A stretch of 64,000 bases of DNA from Choanephora cucurbitarum. Lineage: Eukaryota; Mucoromycota; Mucoromycetes; Mucorales; Choanephoraceae. The position numbers and the translations under genes were made by a program. The stretch lies in assembly GCA_025331435.1 (NCBI GenBank), contig JAIWNI010000002.1:248001-312000 (forward strand), read 5' to 3'. Within the stretch, counting starts at the first letter, position 1; the number at the start of each line of letters is the position of its first letter. Below the pieces are notes generated by a model. The model was not told the origin of the DNA. It saw nothing but the letters and a program-made list of their open reading frames with translations, and made no database searches. This document shows positions 11,771 to 15,380 of this stretch, in pieces.

Positions 11771-13394
11771 ATGGATAATTTTTATTCTAGTCCACCTTAC
11801 ACATATTTGCCACCAGCAAGTACAGCAATAGATCATGCTCAAATGTATCGTGGTAGCCATACATATGAGCGAAATTCGCCATTAGATAACGACTATCATA
11901 ACCAGTATGATCATACAGACAGCAATCATCACTGTCAGCATCAACAAGACCCAATCGTTCCTGATCCCTATAACAGCTGGTCCAATCATACACACTCTGC
12001 AGTTCATACTCCGACATTGTATAGCCCCAACTGCCCTTCTGTTGCTCCTGTGATGTGTTCGCCTCGGCCTAAGGTGACGACCAATTTCTGGGAAGATGAG
12101 GGAACAGCATGTTTCCAAGTAGACGCAAAAGGTGTTTGTGTAGCACGTAGACAAGGTATGCTTTTTTTTATGTTCAGAATTTGTTTACACAAACATGTGC
12201 CTGCTTATGTATTAAATCCCTTTTCTTTCTAATGCATCATTAGATAATGACATGATCAATGGAACTAAGCTTCTTAATGTTGCTGGCATGTCTAGGGGGA
12301 AAAGAGATGGTATCCTAAAAAACGAAAAAGGACGTGTTGTTGTCAAAGTGGGTGCAATGCACTTGAAAGGTGTTTGGTAGGCTCATAATTTTTTTTTGAT
12401 TTATTATACAAGATACTCATAGCTCTATTTCATTTTAGGATTCCTTTTAATCGAGCCAGAGAATTAGCTATCAAGTTCAAAATTATGGATGTTTTATTTC
12501 CCTTGTTTGCCGATGAACCTGCCATGTTTGGATATAGTGCCGCTTCACCAAATCAATTAATAAATGAAACTGGTAGCAGCAAGTGTAACACAACGTCGCC
12601 TTCTCTTTCTGGTTTTCATCATCGGGTCTCGGAAGACTATTCCTCAATAAACACCGCCGCTCGTTGGAACAAGGAGTTCGGCAACCATAATATGGGTCAT
12701 CAGTATACTTATAGTAATGACTTACAACACTCACAATGTAAGTTAATAACATCGTCCGTAGATTCCTACTGGCTTTGGCTAATATATATACTCATTCGTT
12801 TATTTTCCTCTAAAATCTATAGTGTTTTGCAAGACAAGTCATTCTGATCTTTCTGCAACTACAAGTCCTGTACCTCAATCACTGAACCATGCGAAAGAGT
12901 CACCAAACAATGACATCTATTTACTACATAATGAGCATAATAATAATAGTAGTAGCAATAACGCTAGCAGCACAAACCCCTATGTTTACTATTATTCCCG
13001 TCCTTCTTTCAATCGAAACAGTTTCAGTAGTACTGTCTCTAATCAACACTCTTACACTACATATCCTCCACCTCCTTCACTACAACATGAAAATTTAGAT
13101 ACAAACAATCATCTCTACAAAACACCATATCATCATCAAAAGACTACACATGCTCATCATTCCCCATATACCAGCCTCCCATACCCTACTTCAAAGACAA
13201 TTGATACCAGTGCAGGCTCGACCACACCTTCTTCTTGGCTCTCCCCTGAAACACCTACTGCCGTTTTATTTCAGCAAAAAGAGGAACTATCCCCTAACAA
13301 GAAAAGAAAATCTTCTTACTCAGCTGAGTCACCCAGCAAGCGAGTTTCTTTAGTAGAGTCAAACCTATTGAAATTGACGTTTTCGAAAAAATAA
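11771..13394 (+). CDS. APSES-domain transcription factor (StuA/Efg1/Phd1-like), C-terminus altered by a transposon
   Basis: DNA-binding regulator of the fungal APSES family, whose characterised members control morphogenesis and sporulation. Exons: 11771-12157, 12244-12376, 12439-12737, 12823-13394; every junction has GT-AG ends and keeps frame. The APSES domain starts near residue 110 (TTNFWEDEGTACFQVDAKGV) and runs through DNDMINGTKLLNVAGMSRGK, GRVVVKVGAMHLKGVWIPF and NRARELAIKFKIMDVLFPLF, the diagnostic StuA/Efg1 signature. Both flanks are low-complexity His/Asn/Ser/Pro-rich, with a basic patch (NKKRKSS, SKRVS) near the end. The final 13 residues after SLV are encoded by the inverted repeat of a transposon inserted at 13355/13356; its sequence provides the stop TAA (13392-13394). 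The frame that continued before insertion resumes at 15318 and stays open for 20 codons. The DNA-binding domain is intact, so function may be retained. Confidence 0.92.
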
Positions 13395-13591
13395 ATGGCG
13401 TAAACTCAAAAATGAATGGTCAAAGTTGAAAAATGATTGGCACAAATAGAAAAATGATTGGCACAAATAGAAAAATGATTGGCACAAATAGAAAAATGAT
13501 CTGTCCTTTAGTCTGTAGACAAATGTCCATAAGTGTAGACAAATGTCCATAAGTGTAGACAAATGTCCATAAGTGCTGAATTGACTTGGCG
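13356..13591 (+). repeat. Left terminal inverted repeat with internal tandem repeats
   Basis: 236 bp. It holds three 21-bp units (13428-13490, core AAAAATGATTGGCACAAATA) followed by three 20-bp units (13515-13574, GTAGACAAATGTCCATAAGT). The outer part is translated as the tail of the APSES protein and includes AATAAA at 13390-13395 overlapping the stop codon. Confidence 0.93.
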
Positions 13592-13639
13592 CAAAAGCAA
13601 CGACTTACTTGCGCTTTTATAATCTAAAGCCAATAAGTA

Positions 13640-13640
<1 letters not shown>

Positions 13641-13674
<34 letters not shown>

Positions 13675-15042
13675 GAAGACGGACTTGACAACCTCTACAA
13701 CGAGCGAGGAGAGAAAGTCTATGATCCCATGGAAGGCATTTTGACTGATGTCAGCGATCCTAACATTGTTCTCGAGAACATTACTAGTAGAGAAAAGTGT
13801 TTGAGTGCTAAGCGTCCCGAGAAATCTCGTAAACCAACTTCAACAAAGAAGCAGTCGAAGCATGAAAAATTGAGAAAAGCCACCTCTTACAAAAACTACA
13901 ATGATTTAACAAGAGAAACTTTCATTGATCACATGCTTGAGCAGCCGGTGGAGTGAGGTGTTGTAAGTAGAGTTGCGAAAGACTTGAATATCAATTGCCG
14001 TACGGTCTTGAGGTGGTGGCACCTTTACAATGAAACCGAGGAAGTTACTTATAGGAAGTCAGAACAGAACGCTGGACGAAAAAGTTCCTTTACGGCTGCA
14101 CATAATGCGCACATTTATGAGCTTATCGAGAACGATCTATAGCTAGTATTAGATGACATTATTGATAGCTTAACCAAGAACTTTGAAGATTTCAAGATAT
14201 CAAAATCTCAATTCAACAACCACTTAAGGAACACAATGTTAATAGTAATCAAGAAACCCGTTTTTGAAGCTGAAGTGAGAAATTCAGCAGAGAATCTGCA
14301 AACAAGATATGAATGGTTCATGAAATGAAAAGACTCTGATCTAGATTATACAGAAAACTGTGTTTTTACTGATGAAGCCGGTTTCTATATTAACATGAGA
14401 AACAACTGGGCTAGATCAAAGTCGGGAAGTATTCCTGTAGTAAAGCAACCAAAAACTAGATCGCCCTCTCACACTGTTATTGGTGTCATACATTCATCTG
14501 CTGTTATGCATGTGGTTATGAAAAAGCCTCCACCAAGAAAAGAGACAAAGGCTGATAAGAAAAAAAAAAGAAAATCCAACATTGGAAAGAAAAGAACTGC
14601 AGCTGAAGTCGACAGATTTGACCCTTCAACAGAGGAAGATAACATGAGCAACAAACCTGTAGCCAAAGATACTACAACTGCTCATTTTGTTAAGTTTATC
14701 AACGAGCTTCTTGATATAATGGATATGGATGAGAGCATAAAAGGACATTACTTAGTCCTTGACAATGCGTCTATTCACAAGTCTAAGCCCATGATTCGCA
14801 AAATCGAAAGCAAAAGTTATAGGGTTACGTACTTGTCACCTTATTCACTTGAATTGAGCCCAGTTGAGTAATTTTGGACTATTGTTAAAGGCAAAATGAA
14901 GCGTGACAGATTGATGACAGAGGAGAATTTATCTAGCAGAATTGCCGACGCATGCAATGATGTGCTTATTAGCGATCTTTATGGCTTCTGTAGTCATTTC
15001 AAGCGTCAGATCATCAATTGTTTCAGCAAAACACCATTTTAG
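13641..15042 (+). pseudogene. Tc1/IS630-type DDE transposase, broken by four in-frame stops
   Basis: One reading frame from about 13609 or 13673 to the stop at 15040-15042 encodes a DDE transposase but is interrupted at 13954 (TGA), 14140 (TAG), 14326 (TGA) and 14869 (TAA), with no frame change. Order of parts: basic N-terminus; a helix-turn-helix-like stretch (VVSRVAKDLNINCRTVLRWW); a first catalytic Asp block (CVFTDEAGFYINMRNNWARS); a Lys-rich insertion (KADKKKKRKSN); a second Asp block (HYLVLDNASIHKSKPMI); and a third acidic block around SPYSLELSPVE then FWTIVKGKMKR. The three blocks are the expected DDE/D layout of the IS630-Tc1-mariner group. A run of 31 T (13642-13672) sits just before the conserved part, and a T-run this long may be expanded. 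The ATG upstream of it is not secure. Confidence 0.88.
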
Positions 15043-15080
15043 GCTTTGTCAGTTTCTTTCAATAAATTTGTATTGTTATA

Positions 15081-15315
15081 CGCCAAGTCAATTCAGCACT
15101 TGTGGACATTTGTCTACACTTATGGACATTTGTCTACACTTATGGACATTTGTCTACACTTATGGACATTTGTCTACAGACTAAAGGACAGATCATTTTT
15201 CTATTTGTGCCAATCATTTTTCTATTTGTGCCAATCATTTTTCAACTTTGACCATTCATTTTTGAGTTTACGCCATTTATTTTTTCGAAAACGTCAATTT
15301 CAATAGGTTTGACTG
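15081..15315 (-). repeat. Right terminal inverted repeat with internal tandem repeats
   Basis: 235 bp, inverted copy of 13356-13591. It holds four 20-bp units (15098-15177) and two 21-bp units (15202-15243), against three and three on the left: the arms differ almost only by repeat copy number, plus a terminal base and one change in the innermost 20-bp unit. Confidence 0.93.
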
Positions 15316-15380
15316 TAGCTTGTGATTCGCCCACTCAAAGAGTAATCAAGATAATACAGCCACAAAGTGAAGAGAAGTAG
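15316..15380 (+). pseudogene. Displaced 3' end of the APSES gene
   Basis: Directly after the right TA, the phase of the interrupted exon continues open for 20 codons (beginning GCT TGT GAT, ending GAA GAG AAG) to a TAG at 15378-15380. Removing the element and one TA copy joins this in frame to codon GTA at 13353-13355. This is the expected ancestral end of the gene, now separated by 1.96 kb from the rest and probably not translated. Chance would not often give this match of phase, though 20 codons is short. Confidence 0.75.

What the first reader, a model, noticed from the sequence alone, without database searches (positions are those of the whole stretch)
13300..15380. A Tc1-like transposon has rewritten the C-terminus of an APSES developmental regulator
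The element sits in the last exon at a TA. Its inverted repeat is read through for 13 codons and supplies the stop codon and an overlapping AATAAA (13390-13395), so it may end both protein and transcript. On the far side the original phase stays open for 20 codons to a TAG at 15378. The DNA-binding domain is untouched, so this may be a tolerated or even adaptive tail replacement in a morphogenesis regulator.
Basis: partly seen in the sequence, partly recalled or inferred. Interest (0 to 1): 0.8.

Follow-up and report, generated by a model that had tools for sequence, protein, structure and literature searches.

The report
Transposon swaps a fungal regulator's tail
In a genome of the mould Choanephora cucurbitarum a jumping gene has landed near the end of a developmental regulator gene and replaced the protein's last 20 residues with 12 of its own, which is a clear but fairly ordinary example of how mobile DNA edits proteins.

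Summary
Window 13356-15315 is a 1,960-bp Tc1-like element flanked by TA, inside the last exon of an APSES (StuA-type) gene of Choanephora cucurbitarum. The deposited protein EDC96DRAFT_589071 equals my 4-exon model and ends with 12 element-encoded residues; the finding said 13. The 20 codons beyond the element match the Blakeslea trispora orthologue's tail at 16 of 20 positions, as well as the rest of the protein does (345 of 438), so the pre-insertion end is identified. The lost tail holds a short terminal motif found in 13 of 14 orthologues, 0 of 105 other listed APSES hits, and not in the replacement. The element's arms differ at one or two bases, so the insertion looks recent. Its transposase has four stops, each a sense codon in the seven or eight other copies aligned there, so another copy probably moved it. 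Among 22 arm tips found, only this one is read into by a long open frame. Most likely a recent, tolerated tail swap; adaptation is untested. AATAAA belongs to the arm; transcript ending there is unproven. A known kind of event, unusually clean.

The parts
11771..13394 (+). APSES (StuA-type) regulator gene; coding exons 11771-12155, 12244-12376, 12439-12737, 12823-13394; 462 aa
   Evidence: Model translated; identical to deposited P0001, Choanephora cucurbitarum EDC96DRAFT_589071; Pfam KilA-N 2.5e-8
13354..13355 (.). Left TA of the target-site duplication (last two bases of codon GTA, V450)
13356..15315 (+). Tc1-like element, 1,960 bp
   Evidence: Arms and TA; DDE_3 1e-13 in the longest open piece; 124 matching pieces in the own genome including its own, a lower bound
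13356..13591 (+). Left inverted arm (236 bp) with 21-bp and 20-bp tandem units; its outermost base is G, whereas the other 21 of 22 tips listed have C
13356..13391 (+). 12 element-derived codons (ESNLLKLTFSKK) of the host protein
   Evidence: same residues end P0001
13392..13394 (+). TAA stop supplied by the arm
13390..13395 (+). AATAAA in the arm, possible but unproven poly(A) signal
13675..15040 (+). Transposase frame (approximate limits), one phase, interrupted by four in-frame stops
15081..15315 (+). Right inverted arm (235 bp)
15316..15317 (.). Right TA of the target-site duplication
15318..15380 (+). Stranded original C-terminus, 20 codons (ACDSPTQRVIKIIQPQSEEK) and TAG, with the conserved motif RVIKI
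   Evidence: 16 of 20 identical to Blakeslea P0002; motif count
15439..15444 (+). AATAAA after the original stop, presumed native poly(A) signal
   Evidence: role inferred

Best explanation
A Tc1-like (DD34E) element jumped recently into a TA in the last exon of an APSES regulator gene in this Choanephora cucurbitarum genome. Translation enters the inverted arm in a phase that stays open for 12 codons, then meets the arm's TAA, so the protein is 462 aa with an element-derived tail in place of the last 20 residues (shown from sequence and the deposited protein). The element probably carried a broken transposase when it landed and was mobilised by transposase from another copy (inferred). The DNA-binding domain and the upstream KKRK basic cluster remain; a conserved terminal motif is lost (shown). 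The likely outcome is a working or partly impaired regulator under weak constraint, not a new function (inferred).
For: TA and near-identical arms. Deposited protein identical to the model with the arm tail. Blakeslea orthologue uninterrupted at the site: tail 16 of 20 identical, protein before the site 345 of 438, last 60 aligned residues 50 of 60. Orthology: the 15 SW[YLF]SPETPT proteins form one group (support 92/91; P0001 with P0002 98/94) in a tree of 38 of 111 extracted domains, partly hand-picked. Terminal motif in 13 of 14 orthologues, 0 of 105 other listed hits, 225 of 7,000 shuffled tails. Against 8 other copies, the four stops are sense codons in 7 of 7, 8 of 8, 8 of 8 and 7 of 7 copies whose sequence aligns there. 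The window copy has 41 private changes in 1,225 columns, about equal over codon positions; had these arisen in place, about 14.5 arm differences would be expected and one or two are seen (Poisson 8e-6 or 6e-5). The window's left tip is the only one of 22 with a long upstream open frame, 191 codons against at most 71.
Against: No transcript data. The arm comparison is not a clean clock: both arms share a base that 19 of the other 20 tips lack, so the arms have been made alike at some time and could have been again after insertion. No near-identical sibling copy is among the matches (best about 90%). A second strain could not be examined for an empty site. The motif was defined after looking at the tails.
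Confidence: 0.8

Rival explanations
1. The element behaves as an intron: splice sites in or near its arms remove most of it from the mRNA and restore all or part of the original tail, as reported for Tc1 in C. elegans (Rushforth and Anderson 1996; only its title was seen, in reference lists).
For: Five GT-AG pairs near the two ends lead in frame into the old tail: two keep all of it (with extra arm residues), three only its last part; one uses a GTAGAG donor formed across the left junction. A passage of PMC4120734 says that cryptic splice sites can be activated by transposon insertions in coding regions.
Against: Such introns would be about 1.9-2.0 kb; the gene's three introns are 88, 62 and 85 nt and all end in TAG, while the candidate acceptors for in-frame exits end in GAG or AAG. 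The deposited gene model does not splice it.
Confidence: 0.07
2. The gene is on its way out: the insertion destabilises the mRNA (altered 3' end, or an arm-to-arm hairpin in read-through transcripts feeding RNA interference), and the tail is incidental.
For: Two almost identical inverted arms about 1.5 kb apart in one potential transcript. Other APSES-like loci on 7 other contigs of the genome could cover for it, three of them weak matches.
Against: The reading frame before the site is open and 345 of 438 aligned residues equal Blakeslea's; no sign of decay there. Transcript and small-RNA levels were not tested.
Confidence: 0.15
3. Adaptive tail replacement: the element-encoded residues give a new or modified function.
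For: Frame and stop are clean, and the outermost base of the left arm is G where the other 21 of 22 tips have C, which might also impair further excision (the importance of the terminal bases in this family is recalled, not from a call).
Against: One locus in one genome; apparently young; the replaced tail is conserved and the new tail lacks its motif. No population data.
Confidence: 0.05
4. Assembly artefact.
For: Repetitive element with a 31-T run. The deposited protein comes from a contig of the same length (630,092), so from the same assembly, and is no independent check.
Against: Exact TA duplication, arms with matching tips, and the two halves of one conserved gene on either side.
Confidence: 0.02

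Closest known systems
Tc1/mariner superfamily, Tc1-like (DD34E) elements of Mucorales
   Same: TA duplication, inverted arms starting CAGT in most tips, one transposase frame with DDE_3 and DD34E spacing; several listed relatives are named Tc1-like transposase in Rhizopus, Mucor and Parasitella. [quoted passage not shown]
   Different: Arms of about 235 bp containing tandem 20- and 21-bp units; this copy's transposase is interrupted by four stops.
Exonic Tc1 insertions in C. elegans removed by splicing (Rushforth and Anderson 1996; title seen in reference lists of PMC2447444 and PMC4120734; paper not held)
   Same: Tc1-type element inside a host gene.
   Different: Here the predicted outcome is a new stop and tail rather than splicing; untested by RNA.
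Host-TE fusion proteins of fungi (Oggenfuss et al. 2024, PMC10799480; abstract and section list seen)
   Same: Transposon sequence becomes part of a predicted host protein.
   Different: That screen looks for TE-derived protein domains; here an inverted repeat supplies 12 residues.
APSES regulators of Mucorales, orthologues P0002-P0014 and P0016
   Same: APSES domain, SW[YLF]SPETPT block and a basic cluster after it.
   Different: Only the Choanephora protein lacks the terminal motif [RK][RKEV][VILT][KRQ][VIL], apart from P0013, a record marked partial.

Membership tests
Tc1/mariner superfamily (Tc1-like) | TA target-site duplication | tested here: met
   TA at 13354-13355 and 15316-15317
Tc1/mariner superfamily (Tc1-like) | Terminal inverted repeats | tested here: met
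   Arms of 236 and 235 bp, one or two bases different apart from two repeat-unit indels
Tc1/mariner superfamily (Tc1-like) | DDE/D transposase with 34 residues between second D and E | tested here: met
   DDE_3 4.3e-24 in copy L002, 1e-13 in the longest piece of the window copy; D-E spacing 34 measured in L002
Tc1/mariner superfamily (Tc1-like) | N-terminal helix-turn-helix | tested here: inconclusive
   HTH_29 E 0.0024 but below its cut-off in one window piece; no HTH hit in L002 at E 0.01; some homologues carry HTH annotations such as PF13565
Tc1/mariner superfamily (Tc1-like) | Able to code for its own transposase (autonomous copies) | tested here: not met
   Four in-frame stops in this copy; another copy has an open 496-aa frame. 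It makes this a non-autonomous copy rather than a non-member
APSES/StuA transcription regulators | APSES (KilA-N type) DNA-binding domain | tested here: met
   KilA-N 2.5e-8 at 122-197; most invariant alignment columns lie in this region
APSES/StuA transcription regulators | Role in development | not testable with these tools
   Known for StuA relatives in other fungi (recalled); no data for this gene
Element-terminated host gene | Transcript ends in the element | not testable with these tools
   No RNA data held; the reading frame and the deposited model support only the protein end

The most novel reading that the evidence does not exclude
The inverted-repeat tail is a functional replacement: the regulator has traded a conserved terminal motif for element-encoded residues, and the changed outermost base of the left arm has locked the element in place, making it a permanent 3' end of the gene.
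Probability: 0.06. Interest if true: 0.6.

Novelty: new member of a known kind. Interest (0 to 1): 0.33.

Why it matters
It is a clean natural case in which the state before insertion (stranded tail plus orthologue), the event (TA, arms) and the product (deposited protein) can all be read. It also points to a conserved terminal motif in one subfamily of Mucorales APSES regulators and offers a natural motif-less allele. If strains differ at this site, it becomes a simple test of what the motif does.

Tried and rejected
Repeat-induced point mutation as the source of the stops: the copy has 37 transitions among 41 private changes, 25 of them C:G to T:A, but 12 go the other way and the contexts are mixed (CA 10, CT 6, CC 6, CG 3); suggestive at most, not adopted. 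Stops shared by the family: rejected.

Same element capping other genes: of 22 tips within 3 mismatches of the arm pattern, none but the window's left tip has an upstream open frame over 71 codons; tips with more mismatches were not examined, and no gene models were available for the flanks. A first version of that script had the reverse-strand tips in the wrong orientation and is not used.

A second C. cucurbitarum strain: no further orthologue from the species among the 120 listed of 834 hits or the 5 hits of the tail search. P0031, another C. cucurbitarum protein, is a paralogue grouped with Blakeslea P0096; that it comes from strain KUS-F28377 is recalled. These searches see only proteins of 0.55-1.75 times the query length, so this is inconclusive. 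AATAAA as evidence of a transcript end: too common. Literature: eight searches that ran listed no report of this insertion by title or abstract; the library lacks most subscription journals.

Corrected on checking: my first count of one arm difference hid a possible second, and a figure for arm divergence in copy L008 had included sequence beyond the arms.

Full report
What is there. The window is part of a 630-kb contig of a 33.4-Mb, 357-contig genome. The gene at 11771-13394 on the plus strand codes, over four exons, for a 462-residue protein identical to a deposited Choanephora cucurbitarum protein, EDC96DRAFT_589071. Pfam finds one domain, KilA-N (2.5e-8, residues 122-197), the class that holds APSES regulators. 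In the last exon lies a 1,960-bp element, 13356-15315, with TA on both sides and inverted arms of 236 and 235 bp. The arms differ at the outermost base, possibly at one more base in the innermost 20-bp unit (this depends on where the indel is placed), and by one 21-bp unit more on the left and one 20-bp unit more on the right.

How the protein ends. The host frame goes through GTA (V450), then 12 codons of the element, ESNLLKLTFSKK, to TAA at 13392-13394. The finding counted 13. AATAAA at 13390-13395 overlaps the stop. Beyond the element the original phase runs 20 codons, ACDSPTQRVIKIIQPQSEEK, to TAG at 15378-15380.

Is the stranded tail the old tail? Yes. The closest orthologue, from Blakeslea trispora (P0002, 468 aa), is uninterrupted at this point and continues APDSPTQRVIKVIQSQAEEK and nine further residues, so its stop lies later. 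Sixteen of 20 residues are identical; the protein before the site has 345 of 438 aligned residues identical and the last 60 of these 50 of 60. No other stop-free 20-residue stretch of the window (45,231 in six frames) scores above 34 against that tail; the observed score is 78. So the tail has not visibly decayed more than the rest, which fits a recent insertion.

What was lost. Fifteen of 120 listed homologues share the block SW[YLF]SPETPT and form one group in a tree of APSES domains (38 of 111 extracted domains used, partly hand-picked; support 92/91, in 89% of 200 bootstrap trees). Setting aside the window's own protein, 13 of 14 carry the pattern [RK][RKEV][VILT][KRQ][VIL] in their last 30 residues, in 12 of the 13 at 3-6 residues from the end (17 in Blakeslea); the fourteenth, P0013, is a record marked partial. 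None of the 105 other listed homologues has it; shuffled orthologue tails have it in 225 of 7,000 cases. The stranded tail has it (RVIKI), the element-derived tail does not. The pattern was written after looking at these tails, so the count describes rather than tests. The APSES domain and the KKRK cluster lie before the insertion and are unaffected.

The element. Its longest open piece matches DDE_3 (1e-13). An own-genome copy with an uninterrupted 496-aa frame (L002) matches DDE_3 at 4.3e-24 and has 34 residues between second D and E. Of 220 database relatives (120 listed), several are named Tc1-like transposase in Rhizopus, Mucor, Parasitella and other Mucorales. A passage of PMC7928374 calls Tc1/Mariner the largest TE group in the Mucorales genomes it describes. 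The window copy has four in-frame stops. Of eight other copies aligned there, L002-L006 and L008 read sense codons at all four places, L007 at three (its sequence departs at the fourth) and L009 at three (no sequence at the first); some of these copies are broken in other ways. Against the other copies the window copy has 41 private changes in 1,225 columns, spread evenly over codon positions (13, 14, 14), as expected without selection on the protein.

Age. If those 41 changes had arisen after insertion, the arms, evolving at the same rate, should differ at about 14-15 places; one or two are seen (Poisson probability about 8e-6 or 6e-5). The element was therefore probably broken before it landed and moved with transposase from another copy. 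Copy L008, whose arms differ at 18 of 113 aligned places, shows what long residence may look like; copy L004, with 37 private changes of its own, has arms identical over 91 bp. Against a simple clock: both window arms share an A where 19 of the other 20 tips have G, so the arms have been made alike at some time and might have been after insertion. No long match in the genome is more than about 91% identical, so a close source copy is not visible; cut-and-paste movement or gaps in the assembly would explain that.

How unusual within this genome. Of 22 arm tips within three mismatches, only the window's left tip is entered by a long open frame (191 codons; the next is 71, at the same element's other tip). 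In the phase used here 14 of the 22 tips would stop after 12 codons and the rest after 6-26; a second phase stops after about 4 codons, and the third after 9-73. So this kind of end is a general property of the arms, not a fit to this gene.

Rivals. Splicing across the element is possible on paper (five in-frame GT-AG pairs, two of which keep the whole old tail) and has a precedent in Tc1 of C. elegans (title seen only), but would need an intron more than 20 times longer than the gene's longest. Decay of the gene through RNA effects is possible and untested. Adaptation has no evidence beyond the clean frame. AATAAA is frequent in this window (138 against about 100 expected in shuffles), and one after the original stop, at 15439, is intact, so where transcripts end is open.

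Verdict. It is a new member of a known kind: a transposon insertion that edits the end of a host protein.

Noticed in passing
window 16273-16326: A short near-perfect hairpin (arms of about 23 bp, one mismatch by eye) downstream of the gene; in the own genome it matched only itself and its own reverse.
   Followed up: partly
orthologues P0002-P0014, P0016: A short basic-hydrophobic motif at the extreme C-terminus marks one subfamily of Mucorales APSES proteins (13 of 14) and is absent from the 105 other listed hits; function unknown.
   Followed up: partly
G000:C46:85799-86146 and G000:C46:98295-98642: Two short arm-only copies in opposite orientation with the same match lengths and scores to the window element, possibly internally deleted copies in a duplicated inverted segment.
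   Followed up: no
L002 1664-3154 (G000:C57): A copy of the element with an uninterrupted 496-aa transposase frame, so a source of transposase may exist in this genome.
   Followed up: partly
window 13356: The outermost base of the left arm is G, where the other 21 of 22 tips have C; it might affect further movement.
   Followed up: no
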